From Betaproteobacteria bacterium (GTDB lineage Bacteria > Bdellovibrionota_B > Oligoflexia > Silvanigrellales > Silvanigrellaceae), in NCBI GenBank assembly GCA_016868315.1, contig VGHE01000003.1, positions 1 through 64,000 on the forward strand: a stretch of 64,000 bases of DNA, written 5' to 3'. The position numbers and the translations under genes were made by a program. How positions within the stretch are numbered: the first letter of the stretch is position 1; each line of letters opens with the position of its first letter. Of the stretch, positions 17,374 through 28,429 are shown piece after piece. The notes below the pieces were generated by a model that had not been told where the DNA came from, did no database searches, and saw nothing but the letters and a program-made list of their open reading frames with translations.

Positions 17374-17596
17374 GAGAGTCCTTATCTTCTTCGAGGGTCT
17401 GCTTTTTTTGGTGCTGAGTTTACGGGTGAAAGATTAGCAGGAAGAGTGGGGAGATAGAAGTCTCGGGTGGGTTGATTTTTTTACTTTGCCTATTTGCTGT
17501 GATTTTGGAACCGCTAAAAACTATAAAGTTTTCAGGATTATTGTCCGAACCCTCGGCGCGAAACGATTCGCCTGAGCTGCAGTGGAGTTCGAACTC

Positions 17597-20500
17597 ATGA
17601 TTTTTGCAGTTGTAACTCGATACGCACGAAAATATTCCTTTTTTGCGCTGACCGTTGTGCTTTCGGGGTGCTTTGATTTTAACCTCGATGTCGACCATTC
17701 CATCACCCTAAGTGCTGACAAATTCGAAATTGAACGATCATACAAAATGCGCATTGGTGATGCTATTTCCAAAGGTGGAACTAGGAATAAAAACGACGTA
17801 GATAACGAAATTGTAAATACCTGCAAAGAGATCTTTGAGCGTTCAATACCGCAAACTACAAAGATGGTGGCGACCACATCTTTTGCGCGATCGGAATTTG
17901 GTGTTATCTGCGCGCAAAAGATTTCTGGCCCACTAGATTACAGTTTGCTCTCAAAGACCGGGAATTTTTTGGATAGCGAGAGTGAAAAGATAGTCAATCT
18001 CAAAAAATCAGTTGAGCACGATATTGTCTTTGAACGTATTGATAACAAAACATTAAAGCTGACGCGCTTTGTGAGCACTGCTGACGTTATACCTGAGTCG
18101 CTCCTGCCCAAAGGAGTCGGAGGCTCAGACGCAGTGAGCGCGATGATTGCAAAATCAGTTGAGACAAACCTCGCTCGTACCGAGTTTGTGCAGAGCTTCA
18201 ACGTCGCAAGTATAATCGATTCAAACGGAATTGTGAGCCGCGACAGAGGAACTGTTCAATGGCGTACCCCAATTTCTGAATTCAAGTCGGGTAGGAAGGC
18301 TCTGTGGGTCACCTTTGAAATTCCGAGGAAATGGCACGTCCGGGTCTGGCATTCGTTACTCAGCCTCGTCGGGCAAAAGTGCACATCCGAATGTAAGGAA
18401 CACCGCAAACAGATCCAGTCACGTCCAGCTGAGCAGGTCGCGGACAACGCCGCTCAAATAACTGGTTCTGCGAGCAGTCCATCACAAAAATCCAAGAAAA
18501 ACCGGCATCGAGATCATCCACACTCAATTGAATCGGCTCAATTGCATCAGAAGAAGTCACAGCTCGACGACAAGCGATCGGAATTGGAGCGCGCGATAAA
18601 GGCGTACGCCATTGACACGGGCAAGCTCCCTCTCTCTGCAAACGGTCTCGATGTTTTGCTCAAGAATTTGGAGTCGGATCCGCTCTGGAAAGGCCCCTAC
18701 CTCTCAGGTTCAGAGAGTTTGATTGACCCCTGGGGAGAGAAATTCGGCTTCAGGAAGTCCGACCAGGAAAAAGTAGAATACGAGTTTGTACTGAGCCCCA
18801 GGAGTCTTGAGCAGCTCAGAGAAGCAGGCTCGGACAAGAAACTCATTTATCGTTATCAAGAGTTTGGCCTGACCCAGAAGATCCCCAACCCAGACCTCCG
18901 CGGGTCGATTCAAACTGTCGCACCCGATGGAACGGTTTGGTTGATTGGGCAAAATATTTCTGAACAGAACAAATTTGAGCTCTGGAAGTATAAAAACGAC
19001 GCGTGGGCTTTGGTAGCGAAAGCTTATTATTCTGATGAAAATAAGGCGCGCGCATTATGGGCTGATACTTCGGGAGGTGTCTGGGGGTTGTTCGCAGGCA
19101 CGCGCAGTGCTTTGTTCTGGAAATTGCATCAACGCGAAATCAAAAACATGACCGCGTGCAGGGGGAGGCGTGGTCAAATCCATGAATGCATCCAAATCAA
19201 TCCTGATGACAACGCAAAGTCAGTTTTAAAATCGGGTCTGCTGCCTAAGAGAGAAAAGTTTGAATTTTCAAAATTGCCGATGCCTGTCATCAATTCTGAA
19301 GTTTTCTTCTGGAAAGACAAAGCGGGACATTTTTGGGTTTCTGAGGGAGGCGATTACGGAAAAGAAACCAATGAGGTCTGGGTTTGGAATGGAAAAGCTT
19401 GGGCGAAGGAAAATTGGCTCTCAACGAATGACAGAGAGCTTCCTTTTGTAAATCAGCATGCAGCGCATTGGACGGACGCCCAAGGTCATACAATTGTTTT
19501 TGGAGGGGAGAACGGAAGAGCATCGAATGAAAAAATTCTTCGTCCGAATTTCTGGAAGTGGAATGGTGAGACTTGGAATCGGATTGTTGAACGCCCTGGT
19601 GGTGGTCATCCTGGCAGACGTTCAATGGCAACAACGTGGCAAGATGCAAGCGGATGTCTTTGGCTTTTAGGCGGAAAAAGCAGCGATACACCAGCAATGA
19701 ATGACCTGTGGAAGTGGGAGGGTGGCCAGTGGACATTAGTGACCAAAAACACCGAGCTCAATCCTCCGATTCCGCGCAGGCGTCCCGGCCTGGAAAAAGA
19801 CTCGAGTCCCGCTTTTCGCACGGGAGCTATAACCTGGATTGATTCAGCTCAAACGTTATGGTTGCTCGGTGGGCATGGCGCTTCGATTCATGGCTCCAAA
19901 GAAGACTTAAGAGAGCTTTGGAAATTCGAACAAGGAAAATGGATTTTTGAACGGGATTTCTCCTCACCCAGACAAATCAAAAGACGTGAAACTAGTATTG
20001 CAGATTGGAAAAGGGAACAAACCAGCGTGGCATTTTCCAGAATTGATGTCGCCATTTCGGAATTTGCGGGAGACGTAGGCAGACCTCCGACACAAGATGA
20101 GGGTCTCGATGCCTTATTCACAAAGCCCCAAGGAAACATCAATTGGCGTGGACCGTATTTGCCCAGCGATGAATTCAAGTACGGTTTCTACAATGACAAA
20201 ATCCAATACAGCAACGTTCAGAATACGGTAGAGGTTGCTTCCGCAGGGGTGGATGGTCGTTTTGGTACAAGCGATGATCTGCGCCGGTTGTGGATTTCTG
20301 CAGTCTATCCCGCGCTCGGGAAATCCTCCGCCCACAGCTTTCCCGGATTTCGCGAGCGCTCAGCCTTGTGGACGAACGGAAAGGAGTCGTGGCTCTTCGG
20401 TGGTCTTTGCACCGAGAACAACCGTATGATGTTTAGCAATGACCTCTGGAAGTGGGACGGAAAAAACTGGACATGGCTTGCGGGTCGGAAGTGCGCCCAA

Positions 20501-23014
20501 GCAAATGAGAAGAATGTTTCTGCAAGCGCAGAGCAGGAGCCATCTCCCCGCGTTGCGACGACGACCTGGATTGACAGAGCAGGTCATCTTTGGATGTTCG
20601 GAGGTTTCTCCTACCATTCTGGTTCTTTTTCCACTCCAAGAATGAACAATGAGCTTTGGAAGTGGGATGGGCGTTCCTGGATGAATGTCTTGTCAAGTGA
20701 TTCTTCGAAAAATCGGAAAACTTCGAGAGAAAAATCACCCTCACCATCCGTCGAAATGCCTTCGCCACGCAGTGATGCGCGCGCTTGGGTAGACGCTCAG
20801 GGGGAAGTTTGGCTCTATGGTGGCGAAGGGGACGATTCCAAAAAACCAACATTGAATGAACTCTGGAAATGGAGTGGAACGCAATGGACAAAAGTCTTTG
20901 CATCAAATGAAGATGCCTGTGAGGCTCGCACACAACCCAATCCTCGGCGAAGCCCTTCAATCTGGGTTGATGCCAAGGGACAATTCTTTCTTTTCGGCGG
21001 AATCAGTTTCTGCACTGTCAGAGACTACACGATGCGTGTTGTTTCGAATGATTTGTGGCAATGGAACGGAAAAAGCTGGGTTCTATTATCCGGCATTCCT
21101 AACTCGAGCAGACCCTCCCGTTTTGGCAGACGAGGGCACGCATCGTCCCTCAATTATCCGCCTGAACGTTATGGAGCGTCGTCGTGGCTTGATTCCGAGA
21201 ATAACCTTTTCCTTTTTGGTGGTAGTAAAAATAAGGAAAGAACACGCGGAATCGACAATTTAGCAAATGAAGTGAGAGTGAGCGACCTCTGGCGTTGGGA
21301 TGGCTCATCTTGGACCTGGGTTTCCGGCCATCGCTTCCGAGGCGTGATTGAAAACAATAATTTGCGCAAGAGAATGTCGGGCGTAGGCTCTCCAGGGGCG
21401 AGGTCGGAAAGTGTTGTGGCGCGCGCAGCTGATGGCCGAGTGACACTTTTTGGCGGAACTTCGGAATTTGATCAGTCGTGCGTGAATCTGGGCTGTCGAA
21501 TTGGGAGTGTCCAGTCCATCGAATCCATTGTCTACGATTCGTGGAGTTGGGATGGAGAGGTGTGGAGTCTTGAAGCATCGAATACACCTCAGACCATCAA
21601 AGTGATGGCTCCTACCTTGAAGACACATTTAAACGCTGAAGCAATTCAACAAGCACTGCTCGATTTTGTTGAGGTTCGGGGTGATTTTCCTTCTGCGCTT
21701 GAGGTTCTCACAAGCGAGCAAGTTGGTCAGCGTTTGTCATCACGACTTTCACCCGACACTCTGAGGGACGGTTGGGGGAATTCTTTTAATTATAATTTTG
21801 TGGATGGGTATCCCGTGTGGGTGTCGAACGGAGCCGATGGGGCGCCAGGGTCAGATGACGACCTGAAATACCGCTGGGTCGATGAGATTAAATCAAACAA
21901 AAGCAAAAACAGGAAGATTGAATACCCGGGAAGACGCATCAATACGCACACTCAGAAATCGAACGATGGCACGGTTTGGCTCTTTGGTGGTTCAATGGAA
22001 GAGACTCATTCCGATTTTAAGAGGAATTTATCAGAAGACTCTTCCTATAGCGAAGATAAACTCGACCTCTGGCGTTTGAAAGAAAAAAAATGGGTGAAGG
22101 TTGCGGATTTGCAACCTGAAATCGAAAAGAAATACGGAATCGAATTTCAGTATCTCAGTTACAATATGACTATTGCTCCGAATAATGACGTGTATATTTA
22201 TGCGTCGGGTTTGAATGTTCAGAATGGATTTGAGAATTTGTCGGCACGTCGCTTGGATTTAGCGAAAGGTTTTGACCTCTGGAAGTGGGATGGTCAGCGT
22301 TGGCGATGGCTCACTGGAGGCGCAACGTCTGGCAAGATTGATGAAGCTGCGGCTGTTCCAGATGTGGAGAGTCAGTTTGCTGCTTGGGCAGATTCAAATG
22401 GAGATTACTGGCTCTTCGGTGGACAAAGTCGAAGAAATGTTTCAAGTGCTTTTTGGCTTTGGAGCGGAAACAAATGGTCTCAACTCTCGGGAGTCTCAGT
22501 CACACAGTCTGTGAACCAACGTTCCTCAAAAAGAACAGAACCAGATACGCAAGGCCTCTCCGCACGAAGCAATGCAGTTTTGTGGAGAGATCCTGTTACG
22601 GGTCAGCTTGTTCTGTTTGGGGGATTCGATTCCGGAAAAAACTGGCTGAAAGAATCCTGGCGTTGGGATGGGAAAGGTTGGATTCTCATCAGTCAATTTA
22701 AGGAAAAAGAAAGCCTATTGGATTCTAAATCTACCGATTTCTTTGGTCCTCATTCTGAGGTCGGAGTGCGTTTTTGTTTGAACTCGAAAAATCAACTGGA
22801 GCTTGTTGAGCGTTCGCTGGAGGGTTACTCCCGCCAGAGTCCAATAAGAAAAGACGAGACGTGCTCCTCCAGTGACTCTGATGAATGTGTTGCGAATTCG
22901 AAATGGGTTTTTGAGAAGAACGGGTGGACAAAAGCGAAACTTGACCTGAAGGGATTTGATGTTCGGGACTCGAGTGGCTCTGCGTTGAAAATTTTTGAAC
23001 AAATGTGTCAGTAG
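17597..23014 (+). CDS. Giant lipoprotein: kelch-like repeats with three pseudopilin GspG-like modules
   Basis: About 1805 residues from ATG 17597 (GGAG 9 bases upstream; a GTG at 17582 is in frame). The signal ends in the lipobox VVLSGC. Residues 1-300 are unrecognised. From about 420 onward there are some 15 kelch-like units with the pattern W-D-x-x-G-x-x-W-L-F-G-G ... N-D-L-W-K-W-D-G-x-x-W (for example LWLLGGKSSDTPAMNDLWKW). Three modules break the series at about residues 316-418, 808-899 and 1343-1427. Each reads like the C-terminal domain of a type II secretion major pseudopilin (AIKAYAIDTGKLPLSANGLD ... WKGPYLSG ... DPWGEKFGF; the last two end in DGRFGTSDDLRRLW and DGAPGSDDDLKYRW). The hydrophobic pilin helix is absent. 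Probably surface-exposed or periplasmic; function unknown. Confidence 0.85.
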   Translation: MIFAVVTRYARKYSFFALTVVLSGCFDFNLDVDHSITLSADKFEIERSYKMRIGDAISKGGTRNKNDVDNEIVNTCKEIFERSIPQTTKMVATTSFARSEFGVICAQKISGPLDYSLLSKTGNFLDSESEKIVNLKKSVEHDIVFERIDNKTLKLTRFVSTADVIPESLLPKGVGGSDAVSAMIAKSVETNLARTEFVQSFNVASIIDSNGIVSRDRGTVQWRTPISEFKSGRKALWVTFEIPRKWHVRVWHSLLSLVGQKCTSECKEHRKQIQSRPAEQVADNAAQITGSASSPSQKSKKNRHRDHPHSIESAQLHQKKSQLDDKRSELERAIKAYAIDTGKLPLSANGLDVLLKNLESDPLWKGPYLSGSESLIDPWGEKFGFRKSDQEKVEYEFVLSPRSLEQLREAGSDKKLIYRYQEFGLTQKIPNPDLRGSIQTVAPDGTVWLIGQNISEQNKFELWKYKNDAWALVAKAYYSDENKARALWADTSGGVWGLFAGTRSALFWKLHQREIKNMTACRGRRGQIHECIQINPDDNAKSVLKSGLLPKREKFEFSKLPMPVINSEVFFWKDKAGHFWVSEGGDYGKETNEVWVWNGKAWAKENWLSTNDRELPFVNQHAAHWTDAQGHTIVFGGENGRASNEKILRPNFWKWNGETWNRIVERPGGGHPGRRSMATTWQDASGCLWLLGGKSSDTPAMNDLWKWEGGQWTLVTKNTELNPPIPRRRPGLEKDSSPAFRTGAITWIDSAQTLWLLGGHGASIHGSKEDLRELWKFEQGKWIFERDFSSPRQIKRRETSIADWKREQTSVAFSRIDVAISEFAGDVGRPPTQDEGLDALFTKPQGNINWRGPYLPSDEFKYGFYNDKIQYSNVQNTVEVASAGVDGRFGTSDDLRRLWISAVYPALGKSSAHSFPGFRERSALWTNGKESWLFGGLCTENNRMMFSNDLWKWDGKNWTWLAGRKCAQANEKNVSASAEQEPSPRVATTTWIDRAGHLWMFGGFSYHSGSFSTPRMNNELWKWDGRSWMNVLSSDSSKNRKTSREKSPSPSVEMPSPRSDARAWVDAQGEVWLYGGEGDDSKKPTLNELWKWSGTQWTKVFASNEDACEARTQPNPRRSPSIWVDAKGQFFLFGGISFCTVRDYTMRVVSNDLWQWNGKSWVLLSGIPNSSRPSRFGRRGHASSLNYPPERYGASSWLDSENNLFLFGGSKNKERTRGIDNLANEVRVSDLWRWDGSSWTWVSGHRFRGVIENNNLRKRMSGVGSPGARSESVVARAADGRVTLFGGTSEFDQSCVNLGCRIGSVQSIESIVYDSWSWDGEVWSLEASNTPQTIKVMAPTLKTHLNAEAIQQALLDFVEVRGDFPSALEVLTSEQVGQRLSSRLSPDTLRDGWGNSFNYNFVDGYPVWVSNGADGAPGSDDDLKYRWVDEIKSNKSKNRKIEYPGRRINTHTQKSNDGTVWLFGGSMEETHSDFKRNLSEDSSYSEDKLDLWRLKEKKWVKVADLQPEIEKKYGIEFQYLSYNMTIAPNNDVYIYASGLNVQNGFENLSARRLDLAKGFDLWKWDGQRWRWLTGGATSGKIDEAAAVPDVESQFAAWADSNGDYWLFGGQSRRNVSSAFWLWSGNKWSQLSGVSVTQSVNQRSSKRTEPDTQGLSARSNAVLWRDPVTGQLVLFGGFDSGKNWLKESWRWDGKGWILISQFKEKESLLDSKSTDFFGPHSEVGVRFCLNSKNQLELVERSLEGYSRQSPIRKDETCSSSDSDECVANSKWVFEKNGWTKAKLDLKGFDVRDSSGSALKIFEQMCQ

Positions 23015-23055
23015 TTGCATTTTTGCGAGATCGCTGTTTTTAATATTGACCTTCA

Positions 23056-26000
23056 TCAAAACAACGTATCGTTTCTTTCTAGCCCGGTGGGTGGTGCGCT
23101 GGGTAATTTCTTTTGATGCACTGCTGGCAACACTTCCGTGACCAGCACCGAAGGGTTGGGGCCATTTTCCTGCACCCAGCCGCGCACACAGAGAATTGAA
23201 GTGCTCTCCATCCACTCTTTGTATTGTGCCTGGGTGTCGGGGCGAAACACCAGATTCATGGTGCCGGTTTCATCTTCGAGCGTCATAAAGAGCATTCCTT
23301 TTGCTGTGCCGGGCGATTGTCGCACCATAATAAGCCCTGCCACCACCACTTGGGTTTTGTGGCGTTTTTTGCGCAGTGCAAAAGCGGGTGTGAGATTCTC
23401 TACCGGGAAGGCATAAGGCCAGCCGATGTTGCGCAGAAGCAGCATTGGATGAGGGCCGAATGTACTTTGTGTGCTGGCGAAGTCGTCTTGCATGTTGTCC
23501 CAGGCTTCGTGCTGCAGGGATTCTTTTTCCGGAAACAACACATACTCGACATCCGGCATGAGCGCCGAAGGGCGAGCCAGCAGCAGCCAGAGAATATTGC
23601 GGCGGTTGGCATCGAAGACCTCAAAGCAGTTGGCCTGTGCCAGCAGGATTTTTTCATGGGCATAGAAGTTGTCGCACAGCGCAATGGTGTCGTGCAGGGA
23701 AAGGTTTTTGCGGCTGCGGAGAAGCTCTTGTCGCTGTACCACATAAGCGCGTGCCCGCTCTTCGCTGAGGCCGCGCAAAAACCTTAAGCCGAGCTGGAGA
23801 GCTCCATTTTTTGTGACGTAGTGATCCCAGCCCGAGCGCAACACACAGGGAGGGTATACTGCGAGACCACTGTGGCGTGCCTCCTGAATAAGACTGTGCG
23901 GTGAGTAGAAGCCAAGAGGCTGCGAGTTGAGCAAGCCTGCCAGAAAGTAGATGGGGAAATGCGCTTTGAGCCAACACGATGCATAAGCCAAATGCGCAAA
24001 GCTGGTGGCATGGGATTCCGGAAAGCCGTACTGCGAAAAACCCTCAATCTGGCTGTAGATGAGGTCTGCAAAAGCATCTGGGATACCATTTTGCTTCATG
24101 CCGCTGCGCAGCTTCTCTTCGAATTGGGAGATGCGTCCTGTGAATTTCCATGCTCCCATGGCTCGGCGGAGTTCGTCGGCTTCACCGCCCGAAAAATTTC
24201 CAACAGCCATGGCAATGCGCATCACTTGTTCCTGGAACACCGGCACACCCAGGGTGCGGTGCAGAATCCGCTCAAGGCTGGGGTGCGCATAGGTGACCTT
24301 CTCCAGACCACGCTTGCGTTTCACATAGGTCGGAACAATGCCTGAGACGATGGGACCTGGGCGAACAATCCCGACTTGAATCACAATATCGTAAAAGCTG
24401 CGTGGCTTGACCTTGGGCAGCATGCTCATTTGTGCACGGCTTTCAATTTGAAACACTCCAGTGGTGCGTGCTGCGCAAATCAGGTCGTAGGTTTTGCTGC
24501 ATTCGGCCGGGATGGTGTCGAGCTGTACCGGGATAAGCGTACCCGGTATGCACATGCGGTGTCGCCGCAGTTCGGCAAAGGTCTTGCGCAGGGCTGTGAG
24601 CATTCCGAGCGCAAGCACATCCACTTTGAAGAGCCCAAGAGCCTCGATGTCATCTTTGCACCACTGCACCACGCTCCGCCCGGGCATGGTGGCAGGCTCA
24701 ACCGGGCTCAACATGTTGAGTGGTTCGTGACTGATCACGAATCCGCCCGAATGGATTCCGAGGTGGCGTGGGAAGCCTTTGATGAGGCCAATAAAGTGTT
24801 CCCAGCGGGCATTGAACTCTGGTGACTGGGGCTCATTCAGTTGGTCATCGGAGAGGCCGAGCGCTTTGCCCACAAAGCGGCGCGCTCCACGGCTGCGGAA
24901 GGTGATGACGTTGGCCACCATAGCTGCATGCGAGCGGCCGTAGTGCTCATAGATGTATTGAATGACTTCCTCTCTGCGTTCGTGCTCGAAGTCGACATCG
25001 ATATCCGGAGGTTCGCCGCGCTCACGGCTAATGAAACGCTCAAACAGAACATCGGAGACCATTGGGTCGACCGCCGTGATGCCCAGCAGAAAGCAGATGG
25101 CCGAGTTGGCAGAAGAACCACGCCCTTGGCAGAGGATATCTTGCTCGCGTGCAAAGCGGACAATATCCCAGACAGTGAGAAAGTAGTCGGCGAATTTGAG
25201 GTCGCGTACCACATTCATTTCTTTTTCTACCAGAGCCAAAATCCGCTGCGGCGGGGCGTTATTGTAGCGCCGCTGCAGAGCTTCGTGCACCAGGAATTCG
25301 AGGTAGCTTTCGGCGTTGTAGCCCTCGGGAATGAACTTGGACGGGTAGTTGTACTTGAGTTCGTTCAACGAGAATTGAAAGAATCCTGAGAGTTTTTTGT
25401 TGTTCGCAAGGGCATCGACAAGCTCCGGGACTTTCGGGAATTCCATTGCAAAATGCTGCGCTGGGGTCATGCTGCGGCGTGTGTTGCTGAAGCACGCCCA
25501 GGGAATGTTTTCGAGCGGGGTGTTCAAGCGGATGGCAGTGAGGATGTCGTGCAGTTCTTTGCGTTCAGGAACATGAAAAAAGACATCCGGTGTAGCCACA
25601 AGCGGCCATGAGAATTTTCGGTGGCAGGCCAGGTGATTGGCATAGGCCTGGCGTTCGAAGGGTGTGCTGGGTGGGGTGAGTGCCATGAAAAAGCGCTGCG
25701 GATAACGCTCTGCGAAATGCCCCACGCACTCGCTCCACGCATTGAAGAGATGGGACTGACGTGGTGAAAACAGCTGCTGCACACCACGCATCGGCCAGAG
25801 CACCACAGCCTCACGCGGCCAGGGGATGTGCGGATCGTTCCACTCGAGCGGGGTTGCTGTTTTGCCATTGCGGTGCGCATAGCTGATGAGTGTGCAGATT
25901 TCAGCGTATGAAGATTTGCTTGTGGCCAGAAACGCAACCCGGTTTTGCAGAAACACAGGCGCATTGTGCACGGGATCATCCCAGATGCGCGCGGCGAGGG

Positions 26001-26241
26001 GATCTGTGCGCAGAGCCTCGGGAACAGGGCAATGCAGCAGCAGCTCGGCACCATAAAAGAGCGGCAGCGGATGTGAATGATTCTTTGCGGCGAGGTGAGT
26101 CTGCACAATCCCATACACACCATCGAAATCGGTGATGCCCAACCCCCACCAGCCCTGTTCGCAGGCAGCCTCCACAAGTTCTCTTGGGTACGAGGCTCCT
26201 TGTAGAAAGGAATAATTGGAGTGTGACAGCCAAACGTACAC
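23056..26241 (-). CDS. dnaE2: Error-prone DNA polymerase DnaE2
   Basis: 1061 residues, the usual DnaE2 length (shorter than replicative DnaE). N-terminal PHP domain (LSHSNYSFLQGASYPRELVEAA) with a changed motif, TDFDG in place of TDHDG. The polymerase active site has PPDIDVDFEHERREEVIQY and the FKVDVLALGMLTALR segment characteristic of DnaE2. The C-terminal OB-fold domain (GMLFMTLEDETGTMNLVF) is present. DnaE2 performs translesion synthesis and damage-induced mutagenesis with ImuA and ImuB. It lies 2 bases after the imuB-like gene, last in the imuA-imuB-dnaE2 operon. Confidence 0.96.
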   Translation of the reverse strand: MYVWLSHSNYSFLQGASYPRELVEAACEQGWWGLGITDFDGVYGIVQTHLAAKNHSHPLPLFYGAELLLHCPVPEALRTDPLAARIWDDPVHNAPVFLQNRVAFLATSKSSYAEICTLISYAHRNGKTATPLEWNDPHIPWPREAVVLWPMRGVQQLFSPRQSHLFNAWSECVGHFAERYPQRFFMALTPPSTPFERQAYANHLACHRKFSWPLVATPDVFFHVPERKELHDILTAIRLNTPLENIPWACFSNTRRSMTPAQHFAMEFPKVPELVDALANNKKLSGFFQFSLNELKYNYPSKFIPEGYNAESYLEFLVHEALQRRYNNAPPQRILALVEKEMNVVRDLKFADYFLTVWDIVRFAREQDILCQGRGSSANSAICFLLGITAVDPMVSDVLFERFISRERGEPPDIDVDFEHERREEVIQYIYEHYGRSHAAMVANVITFRSRGARRFVGKALGLSDDQLNEPQSPEFNARWEHFIGLIKGFPRHLGIHSGGFVISHEPLNMLSPVEPATMPGRSVVQWCKDDIEALGLFKVDVLALGMLTALRKTFAELRRHRMCIPGTLIPVQLDTIPAECSKTYDLICAARTTGVFQIESRAQMSMLPKVKPRSFYDIVIQVGIVRPGPIVSGIVPTYVKRKRGLEKVTYAHPSLERILHRTLGVPVFQEQVMRIAMAVGNFSGGEADELRRAMGAWKFTGRISQFEEKLRSGMKQNGIPDAFADLIYSQIEGFSQYGFPESHATSFAHLAYASCWLKAHFPIYFLAGLLNSQPLGFYSPHSLIQEARHSGLAVYPPCVLRSGWDHYVTKNGALQLGLRFLRGLSEERARAYVVQRQELLRSRKNLSLHDTIALCDNFYAHEKILLAQANCFEVFDANRRNILWLLLARPSALMPDVEYVLFPEKESLQHEAWDNMQDDFASTQSTFGPHPMLLLRNIGWPYAFPVENLTPAFALRKKRHKTQVVVAGLIMVRQSPGTAKGMLFMTLEDETGTMNLVFRPDTQAQYKEWMESTSILCVRGWVQENGPNPSVLVTEVLPAVHQKKLPSAPPTGLERNDTLF

Positions 26242-26243
26242 GC

Positions 26244-27857
26244 CTAAAAAAGCCTTTCCTGGAGTGAGCTGCCACGGGGTTCGTAGATGCCCTTGAGCTC
26301 AAAGCGAGCCTCTGCAGGTGCGCTTCCCGCAGCGCAGCTGAGCAGCAGGGCAGGGAGCGAGGGCGCGTGGAGGGCGTAGAGATCTTCGCTCTCGATGCTT
26401 TCCAGATATTCGAGGTGATGTACGGGAGCTTCGCGTGCAGCAAAAAAATCAGAGAGAGTGAACTCGATTTTCTCCTTGAGCAGATGCAACGGCCGCTCCT
26501 GCACGGCATAGCGGAACAAACACGAAGGGGCGTGTTGGTTCATTTTCTTTTTGTTCAAGTACTGCAGCTTTTCGGCTGCCTCCACAAGTTTAGTGGTATT
26601 TTTTTGTGGAGAAGACGCACTCGAGAAGCTGGCCTGCAAGGGAACCTGAAAGGCTTCGCCTGCATGCTTGAGCTCAAGGTTCTGGATGATGCGCTCAAGC
26701 GGCAGGGAAGCGCGCTGGGTGTGCAGAGCGCTTGATGCTGAAACAGTGCATGGTGTGATGCGCAGTGGTTCCAGTGTGAGCCGATAAATTTGAAAGGCCT
26801 TGAAATAAAATGAGGGCTCGTTGGGGTGCTGAAACTCCTGGCCTTTGTGCGGTAGCTTGGCGAGCAGGTTGTCGAGCAACAGCCGTGTGGTTTTGTTGAA
26901 TTCCATAACCGGTTCATTCAGCAAACACGACTGCTGAATTTTGAGATTGTTTTCAATTTCGAGGGTGAGCTTGAAGTCGCGGATACCGAAGGCGCGCTCC
27001 AGGCTGTTGTAGGCCGACACTTTATCGAGAAGCTTTCTGAAGACACTTTCAAGCATAGCGGGAAGCGTGCTGATCGGATAGCTCGGTTCGTTGCGGAAGT
27101 CGTCGCAGTCTTCGCTTGTGGTGATGAAATCCTCGGCGCAGAGGTCTTGAGGGAGATCTTTGAAGACAGTTCCCAGCGAGAGCTCTGGTCGGCTCCACAT
27201 TTCCCAGAAGAGAACCGCCCAGCGTCCGAAGCGGCGTGCGATGTCGTCGTTTTGCAGGTCGTGTGGAAAATGTGCAGGGCTTTGGAAACGCATTTTTTGC
27301 GCGGCCTCGGAAAACTGGCTGACACTGCGCACAAGTTCCTGGAGTTCGGTGTTTTTGAGTTGAAGAAGGCTCGCAAAGAGCAGACATGCTTCCCGCCACT
27401 CAGGCCAACCCAGAGCCGAAAGATGATTGCGGAACACGAGATTGTTGGAATCGGCCACGACAAATTCGGTTTCAGGATGATGCAGACCAAAGTGAAGCCC
27501 GGCAAAAAGATGATGCGAGAGGAGAAGTCGCGGCCGCACACCGGGCGCCAGGTGCTGCACCTGAGCATGGTAGACACGAGCCATGGCATCCCATGACCCG
27601 AAATACCGGAGGGTGTGTTGGAGGGAGACGAGCAGGACGGTGAGGTGGGGTCGAAGGACATGCTCCGACAACGCCTGTGCCAGTGTGCGCGCCGCGAAAA
27701 GTGAATTGGAGTTGAGATCCGGAAGAAAAATGTATCCCCACAACGTGCCAGTGTGCGCACCGCGGCTGAGCGGAAGATGCGTGCGCGATGAGGCTTTGAG
27801 GCTGCGCTGTTCGAACAGAGTGCCTATGGATTTGCCGGAGAAATGTTTGAACCTCAT
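26244..27857 (-). CDS. imuB: Highly divergent ImuB-like Y-family polymerase homologue
   Basis: 537 residues. Assigned mainly by position (between an imuA-like gene and dnaE2) and by a few ImuB features: WGYIFLPDLNSNSLFAARTL near the N terminus, the little-finger-like stretch GIRDFKLTLEIENN...LLNEPVMEFNKTTRLLLDNLLAKL (about 308-353), and FELKGIYEPRGSS near the end. ImuB is a catalytically dead Y-family protein that links DnaE2 to the sliding clamp. No catalytic Asp/Glu motif is visible, as expected. The last five residues, QERLF, fit the clamp-binding pattern QxxLF, which in other ImuB proteins is internal. The start overlaps the imuA-like stop (ATGA). Confidence 0.72.
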   Translation of the reverse strand: MRFKHFSGKSIGTLFEQRSLKASSRTHLPLSRGAHTGTLWGYIFLPDLNSNSLFAARTLAQALSEHVLRPHLTVLLVSLQHTLRYFGSWDAMARVYHAQVQHLAPGVRPRLLLSHHLFAGLHFGLHHPETEFVVADSNNLVFRNHLSALGWPEWREACLLFASLLQLKNTELQELVRSVSQFSEAAQKMRFQSPAHFPHDLQNDDIARRFGRWAVLFWEMWSRPELSLGTVFKDLPQDLCAEDFITTSEDCDDFRNEPSYPISTLPAMLESVFRKLLDKVSAYNSLERAFGIRDFKLTLEIENNLKIQQSCLLNEPVMEFNKTTRLLLDNLLAKLPHKGQEFQHPNEPSFYFKAFQIYRLTLEPLRITPCTVSASSALHTQRASLPLERIIQNLELKHAGEAFQVPLQASFSSASSPQKNTTKLVEAAEKLQYLNKKKMNQHAPSCLFRYAVQERPLHLLKEKIEFTLSDFFAAREAPVHHLEYLESIESEDLYALHAPSLPALLLSCAAGSAPAEARFELKGIYEPRGSSLQERLF

Positions 27858-28429
27858 GTGCGCCCTCGTGTTTCATCGAGGGCAATGAACAAGCGATCGC
27901 GCACAGCATTTTCGAGCCCGTTGGCCGACTGCGGCTGCATTGGATTGTGAGTGCTCGGTTTGAGCCAGCGCTGCGCGCGTTTGAGGATGACCGGAGTGAG
28001 AGGGGCTTCAAGAACAATGACATCAAAATGCCCTTCACTGCACACTGCCTCAACGCTTTGTTGGGGGTGTGTGCTTTCAAGAAAAAGTGTGTGTGCAAGC
28101 GAGATCTCAAAAGATTCAAGGGTGCGGCGGTTGAACTCCAGCGCGCTGCTGGCCAGGGAGATCCAGGCGATGTTGAGTAGAAGATGAGGATCGCGCTCGC
28201 GCTTGCGCAGAATGTTTTGTTGCTTGCGGAGGAGTTCTAGGGTTTGCGCATAGGGTTTGAGCTGTAGAGCCTGCAGAGCTGCAGGCAGAGCGCGGTTGTG
28301 AGTGCCCCAGATTCTCAGGGGGGTACTGTTGAGACGCACAAACCCAGTAGAGGACGGGCGTGTGAGCGAGGCTTCCCGCGGCCGAGCAGAAGCTTCGATC
28401 TGAAAGGGGATGTGGAGTCCGCTGCTCAT
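27854..28429 (-). CDS. imuA: ImuA/SulA-like protein, first gene of the mutasome operon
   Basis: 191 residues. It occupies the ImuA position (imuA-imuB-dnaE2) and overlaps imuB by 4 bases. Sequence likeness is weak: RALPAALQALQLKPYAQTLE at residues 45-64, LLLNIAWISLASSALEFNRR and EGHFDVIVLEAPL resemble the beta-strands of a RecA/SulA-type fold. No Walker A motif (GxxxxGKT) is present, so it cannot be a canonical ATPase. ImuA proteins interact with RecA and ImuB during translesion synthesis. Function assigned from context; a small SulA-like inhibitor is the alternative. Confidence 0.6.
   Translation of the reverse strand: MSSGLHIPFQIEASARPREASLTRPSSTGFVRLNSTPLRIWGTHNRALPAALQALQLKPYAQTLELLRKQQNILRKRERDPHLLLNIAWISLASSALEFNRRTLESFEISLAHTLFLESTHPQQSVEAVCSEGHFDVIVLEAPLTPVILKRAQRWLKPSTHNPMQPQSANGLENAVRDRLFIALDETRGRT

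What the first reader, a model, noticed from the sequence alone, without database searches (positions are those of the whole stretch)
17597..23014. Mosaic lipoprotein: kelch propeller units interrupted by pseudopilin GspG-like modules
About 15 kelch-like units are broken by three modules that follow the pattern of the globular domain of the type II secretion major pseudopilin (Gly-Leu-Asp-x-Leu, Trp-x-Gly-Pro-Tyr-Leu, Asp-Pro-Trp-Gly, and Gly-x-Asp-Asp-Leu at the end). The modules lack the pilin helix and sit inside a long secreted protein. I know of no described architecture like this. Because the pseudopilin domain binds calcium in the Asp-rich end, the modules could be calcium-stabilised spacers or contacts with a secretion machine.
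Basis: partly seen in the sequence, partly recalled or inferred. Interest (0 to 1): 0.85.

Follow-up and report, generated by a model that had tools for sequence, protein, structure and literature searches.

The report
Lipoprotein alternating pseudopilin and kelch domains
A bacterium carries one very large, probably cell-surface lipoprotein in which a domain normally used to build a secretion pilus is reused three times without its membrane helix, each copy set in front of a propeller-shaped binding domain; this arrangement was found in no other genome we could search.

Summary
The 1,805-aa ORF (17597-23014, +) is a predicted lipoprotein with three segments that are each true PF08334 (GspG pseudopilin) homologues without the N-terminal pilin helix (44.6, 50.2 and 21.6 bits; cut-off 21). 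A profile of the three modules alone picks out all eight solved GspG-type structures in the PDB and nothing else significant. One correction: the modules do not interrupt a propeller. There are 17 kelch units in blocks of 6, 6 and 5, with one module before each block. A structure model of block B is a complete six-bladed kelch propeller, so the architecture is N-domain + 3 x (pseudopilin module - propeller). The calcium loop is intact in modules 2 and 3 and lost in module 1. Among 58 held genomes of the phylum only this one has the protein. In a same-genus genome the flanking genes (dnaE2, sohB) are adjacent, so the gene is lineage-specific. The pseudopilin fold of the modules rests on sequence homology, since the models were poor there. 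Most likely function (inferred): a surface ligand-binding rod in which helix-less pseudopilin domains act as spacers, two of them calcium-stabilised. This is a new architecture of known domains, moderately interesting.

The parts
17597..17668 (+). Predicted lipoprotein signal peptide ending in the lipobox L-S-G-C; the acylated Cys is at 17669-17671
   Evidence: Read directly from the translation, residues 6-30 MIFAVVTRYARKYSFFALTVVLSGC; the lipoprotein assignment is inferred from the lipobox
17669..18529 (+). N-terminal domain, about 290 aa, function unknown
   Evidence: No Pfam match up to E=10 and no NCBIfam match up to E=1; no relative in the phylum apart from one chance-level match, E=0.009
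18530..18880 (+). Pseudopilin module M1 (PF08334 without the pilin helix), calcium loop lost
   Evidence: 44.6 bits, E=1.6e-11; alignment shows GLDVLL, W-K-GPYL, DPWG kept and the Asp-rich loop deleted
18881..19957 (+). Kelch block A, six units
   Evidence: Six unit matches at residues 450-789, the second one very weak at 0.4 bits; PF24681 E=1.6e-8
19985..20299 (+). Pseudopilin module M2 with intact calcium loop
   Evidence: 50.2 bits, E=3e-13; module-free GspG profile i-E=1.2e-18
20246..20278 (+). Calcium-loop motif GVDGRFGTSDD of M2 (residues 889-899)
   Evidence: Exact match to G-x-D-G-x-x-[GN]-[TN]-x-D-D; that loop binds Ca2+ in the pseudopilin structure 3G20 (PMC3396595)
20336..21583 (+). 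Kelch block B, a complete six-bladed propeller
   Evidence: Six unit matches at residues 923-1333; AlphaFold2 model region 118-536 matches KLHDC3/KLHDC2/LZTR1 kelch propellers with Z about 25 and bacterial YjhT with Z 24.5
21599..21913 (+). Pseudopilin module M3, degenerate in the middle (W-x-GPY stretch missing), calcium loop nearly intact
   Evidence: 21.6 bits against a cut-off of 21; best hits are the seven GspG proteins of one genus of the same family, which lack the same stretch
21830..21862 (+). Calcium-loop motif GADGAPGSDDD of M3 (residues 1417-1427)
   Evidence: One substitution (S for T/N) from the motif
21917..22951 (+). Kelch block C, five recognisable units, degenerate
   Evidence: Units at 1451-1784, the last with negative score; structure model uninformative, pLDDT 36

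Best explanation
It is a cell-envelope lipoprotein built as an anchored rod: lipid anchor, unknown N-terminal domain, then three repeats of [helix-less pseudopilin domain + kelch propeller of five or six blades]. The propellers are the functional heads (binding of protein or glycan ligands outside the inner membrane). The pseudopilin domains are compact folded spacers that set distance and orientation between propellers; two of them probably bind one Ca2+ each and are stabilised by it. The gene arose or arrived recently in this lineage between dnaE2 and sohB; the pseudopilin modules were taken from GspG-type genes, possibly more than once. Shown: domain identity by sequence, order, block structure, one complete propeller (by prediction), calcium-loop residues, absence from relatives. 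Inferred: surface location, ligand binding, spacer role, calcium binding, capture history.
For: Module homology; no hydrophobic helix before any module, homology begins after the membrane part of GspG; strict alternation module-propeller three times; block B is predicted as a closed six-bladed propeller whose ends coincide with the module boundaries; calcium loop residues D, T/S, D kept in M2 and M3, the ligands seen in 3G20; same-genus G001 has dnaE2 and sohB about 150 bp apart with no gene between; no other member in the phylum; kelch-rich long proteins without pseudopilin domains exist in other families of the class; GC3 0.48 against 0.49-0.64 in eleven nearby genes.
Against: M1 has lost the calcium loop, so calcium is not a general requirement of the spacers. 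Block C has only five clear units and no reliable model. The fold of the modules themselves was not predicted with confidence. No ligand, localisation or expression evidence exists. With no homologue, selection on the parts cannot be measured.
Confidence: 0.6

Rival explanations
1. The modules are interaction domains for the type II secretion machinery: they mimic GspG and dock onto the pseudopilus or the GspD/GspC complex, so the lipoprotein is a T2SS-associated or T2SS-exported surface protein.
For: The genome has a GspD and an ordinary GspG on the same contig. In mitochondria-type GspG the soluble pseudopilin domain alone self-associates with Kd about 0.2 uM (PMC8134430), so contacts without the helix are possible.
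Against: Bacterial pseudopilus assembly depends largely on the N-terminal helix, which is absent (recalled). The three copies are degenerate in different places (M1 lost the calcium loop, M3 lost W-x-GPY), which a shared docking surface would not favour. Relatives with a T2SS lack the protein.
Confidence: 0.12
2. The modules mediate self-association: lipoproteins bind one another through pseudopilin-pseudopilin contacts and form a lattice or filament of propellers.
For: Self-association of an isolated soluble pseudopilin domain has been measured (PMC8134430); several modules per chain would give multivalency.
Against: Divergence among the modules is as large as their divergence from free GspG; no conserved shared surface beyond the fold core is visible.
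Confidence: 0.12
3. Evolutionary debris: a recently assembled mosaic in which the modules have no function beyond tolerated insertion.
For: Single-genome distribution, decay of motifs in M1 and M3, and a low-scoring block C.
Against: A 1,805-codon frame without a stop, module position repeated exactly before each propeller, and calcium-loop residues kept in two of three copies.
Confidence: 0.1

Closest known systems
GspG major pseudopilins (PF08334; PulG, EpsG, XcpT)
   Same: The soluble domain: end of helix 1, GLxxL helix, W-x-GPY loop, DPWG turn, Asp-rich calcium loop
   Different: No prepilin peptidase site, no hydrophobic helix, three copies inside a 1,805-aa lipoprotein; two copies partly degenerate
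Kelch propeller proteins (KLHDC2/3, LZTR1, bacterial YjhT; PF24681, PF13418)
   Same: Block B models as a six-bladed kelch propeller, Z about 25
   Different: Three blocks in one secreted chain, each preceded by a pseudopilin domain
Long kelch proteins in other families of the same phylum (G020, G049, G021, G028, G034, G050)
   Same: Closest kelch relatives found, 35-40% identity in places, the longest from about 1,500 to 1,750 aa
   Different: What flanks the kelch repeats is other repeat-like sequence (fibronectin-III-like by eye, not tested); no T2SSG domain was found in them
Two 457- and 491-aa proteins in G043 and G047 (L056, L057)
   Same: A T2SSG-like domain outside a pseudopilin, in the same phylum
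   Different: Single copy, near an N-terminal membrane segment, weak match (23.9 and 18.9 bits), downstream part unrelated to kelch by Pfam
PERCAL calcium loop of bacterial peroxidases (PMC3396595)
   Same: Same loop consensus G-x-D-G-x-x-[GN]-[TN]-x-D-D, there shown to bind Ca2+
   Different: There a short insert in a peroxidase domain; here part of a whole pseudopilin domain

Membership tests
PF08334 (T2SSG) domain | Sequence match above the curated gathering score | tested here: met
   All three modules alone: 44.6, 50.2, 21.6 bits against 21; M3 only marginally
PF08334 (T2SSG) domain | Three-dimensional pseudopilin fold | tested here: inconclusive
   Modules modelled with pLDDT about 25-57 and about 25-41 from three-row alignments
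GspG major pseudopilin (TIGR01710) | Score above the equivalog cut-off | tested here: not met
   58.6 bits against 88.85
GspG major pseudopilin (TIGR01710) | Prepilin signal and hydrophobic N-terminal helix before the globular domain | tested here: not met
   Homology begins after the helix; hydrophilic sequence precedes each module
Calcium-binding pseudopilin loop | Side-chain ligands D117, T122, D125 of 3G20 | tested here: met
   M2 has D, T, D; M3 has D, S, D; M1 lacks the loop, so met in two of three
Kelch beta-propeller | Tandem kelch units that close into a propeller | tested here: met
   Block B: six units, model Z about 25 against solved kelch propellers. Block A: six units by sequence only. 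Block C: five units, closure not shown
Bacterial lipoprotein | Signal peptide with lipobox and Cys | tested here: met
   LSGC at residues 27-30 after a hydrophobic stretch; lipidation itself not testable

The most novel reading that the evidence does not exclude
Pseudopilin globular domains can be captured repeatedly from type II secretion genes and used as general-purpose, calcium-dependent linkers or docking domains in surface proteins, outside any filament; here they were captured at least twice independently (M3 resembles the GspG of a different genus of the family, which lacks the same stretch; M1 and M2 do not).
Probability: 0.25. Interest if true: 0.65.

Novelty: new variant of a known kind. 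Interest (0 to 1): 0.48.

Why it matters
Major pseudopilins are known as filament subunits whose helix does most of the assembly. A protein that uses only their globular part, three times, as inter-propeller modules would show that this fold can be exapted as an ordinary extracellular building block, and gives a natural test of what the domain and its calcium site do without the filament. It also warns that a PF08334 hit does not by itself mean a secretion pseudopilin.

Tried and rejected
Propeller interrupted by the modules: rejected, since block B closes by itself between M2 and M3 in the model. En bloc triplication of the module-propeller unit: not shown; blades at the same index in different blocks are not significantly more alike than others (permutation p=0.18), although C1 matches A1 best. 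Single origin of the modules from one GspG: not resolved; branches of the modules are very long and tree support for M3 with the g5 GspGs is weak (88/70). Profile comparison A3 against A2 was circular because A2 contains the modules; redone with GspG only. Structure model of M3 + block C: pLDDT 36, discarded. Structure match of the modules: none could be tested, the matches cover only the propeller part. Searches that gave nothing: viral contigs, phages, plasmids (only ordinary gspG genes or unannotated gspG-like matches), 395 genomes of the phylum of the Cyclobacteriaceae kelch hit (only four short ORFs), phmmer of the whole protein against PDB. A Shine-Dalgarno pattern scan was at chance level, and promoter/terminator scans likewise.

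Full report
What is there. The ORF at 17582-23014 (+) codes for 1810 residues; the likely start is the ATG at 17597, giving 1,805 aa with a signal sequence that ends in a lipobox, LSGC. Pfam-A finds PF08334 (T2SSG, protein G of the type II secretion system) with E=2.9e-28 in three stretches and kelch families PF24681 (1.1e-25) and PF13418 (1.7e-13). NCBIfam's GspG equivalog TIGR01710 matches but stays below its cut-off, 58.6 against 88.85 bits, as expected for a protein that is not itself a pseudopilin.

The modules are real pseudopilin domains by sequence. Scanned alone, each passes the PF08334 gathering score: M1 44.6, M2 50.2, M3 21.6 bits against 21, the last marginally. A profile made only of the three modules, searched against all PDB chains, returns the eight GspG/EpsG/PulG-type structures at E=5e-6 to 1e-3 and then nothing below 0.47. 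Profile-profile comparison with GspG proteins of the phylum, modules excluded, gives probability 99.5%, E=3e-23 over 96 columns. A GspG profile built without the modules finds exactly three domains in the protein, i-E 3.5e-12, 1.2e-18 and 3e-6, with the best of 200 shuffled proteins at E=0.8. The alignment shows that homology begins after the hydrophobic helix of GspG and runs to the calcium loop. The pseudopilin fold itself could not be confirmed by prediction: with only the window's own three sequences allowed, the modules were modelled at low confidence.

The modules lie between propellers, not inside one. A profile of the kelch unit finds 17 units: six at residues 450-789, six at 923-1333, five at 1451-1784, of which the 2nd and the last are very weak. 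AlphaFold2 on M2 + block B, with the other two repeats as alignment, gave mean pLDDT 53.5 and pTM 0.53; strands are predicted for all six units. VIA-align matches model residues 118-536 (protein about 917-1335) to the kelch domains of KLHDC3, KLHDC2 and LZTR1 with Z about 25, rmsd about 3.1-3.7, 280-299 residues aligned, and to bacterial YjhT with Z 24.5; Foldseek's best match is a designed six-bladed kelch protein, E=6e-13. So the plan is: lipid anchor, unknown domain, then (M1-A6), (M2-B6), (M3-C5). Block C is the weakest; its model had pLDDT 36 and says nothing.

Calcium. In the pseudopilin structure 3G20 the ion is held by D117, T122 and D125 and two main-chain oxygens, and the loop follows G-x-D-G-x-x-[GN]-[TN]-x-D-D, a consensus whose peptide binds Ca2+ (PMC3396595). 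M2 has GVDGRFGTSDD, an exact match; M3 has GADGAPGSDDD, with Ser for Thr; M1 has lost the loop. Calcium binding by M2 and M3 is therefore likely, by M1 not.

Distribution and origin. Among 58 held genomes of the phylum (identical with the class here), PF08334 occurs in 55, as ordinary short GspG-like ORFs (132-235 aa), except in this protein and in two weak cases in 457- and 491-aa proteins of G043 and G047. The module profile likewise finds no other long ORF, and the N-terminal domain has no relative. In G001, same genus, dnaE2 (86% identical) is followed directly by sohB with about 150 bp between them, so the gene is absent there. GC3 is 0.48 against 0.49-0.64 in eleven nearby genes. A gain in this lineage is the simplest reading; loss elsewhere is not excluded. 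The nearest kelch relatives are long proteins of other families with other repeat-like sequence instead of pseudopilin domains. The modules are no closer to each other (28, 24, 16.5% identity) than to free GspGs. M3's seven best GspG hits are all seven GspGs of one genus of the same family, which share with M3 the loss of the W-x-GPY stretch, whereas M1 prefers GspGs of other families and M2 those of its own genus among others. This hints at separate captures, but tree support is weak and branches are very long.

How it probably works. The genome has a normal GspD and GspG, so the modules are not needed as pseudopilins, and without the helix they could hardly polymerise as such (recalled). The regular placement of one module before each propeller, and the different decay in each copy, fit structural spacers better than a shared docking surface. 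I take the propellers to be ligand-binding heads held away from the membrane by folded, partly calcium-stabilised spacers. The rivals (docking onto the T2SS; self-association, since an isolated soluble pseudopilin domain has been seen to self-associate, PMC8134430; tolerated debris) remain open.

Novelty. No paper in the held library describes such a protein (the one co-mention, PMC10580974, concerns separate genes). All domains are known; the combination, and the use of the pseudopilin domain without helix in a lipoprotein, is new as far as tested. Other phyla could not be searched properly, so rarity is shown only within this phylum, a sample of one other, and the plasmid, phage and viral collections.

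Noticed in passing
L056:1008-2378 (-) and L057:896-2368 (-): Two similar proteins (457 and 491 aa) in two other families of the phylum carry a T2SSG-like domain just after an N-terminal membrane segment, followed by a part without Pfam match; a second non-pseudopilin use of this domain. In both loci a mannose-1-phosphate guanylyltransferase-like ORF (by eye) lies on the same strand.
   Followed up: partly
17374-23058: Lineage-specific insertion site between sohB and the error-prone polymerase dnaE2; adjacent in same-genus G001, different neighbour in G002.
   Followed up: partly
23056-28429: dnaE2 (error-prone polymerase, NF004225) with two upstream same-strand genes of 537 and 191 aa at the positions of imuB and imuA/sulA, but with no Pfam or NCBIfam match; a divergent ImuA-ImuB-DnaE2 cassette is likely by gene order only.
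   Followed up: partly
G000:C8:30515-31183 (L077): A second, separate kelch protein (412-aa frame) in the same genome.
   Followed up: no
L024, L086-L091: The GspG proteins of genus g5 lack the W-x-GPY stretch and have a degenerate calcium loop, unlike most other GspGs of the phylum; their pseudopilus may not depend on calcium in the usual way.
   Followed up: partly
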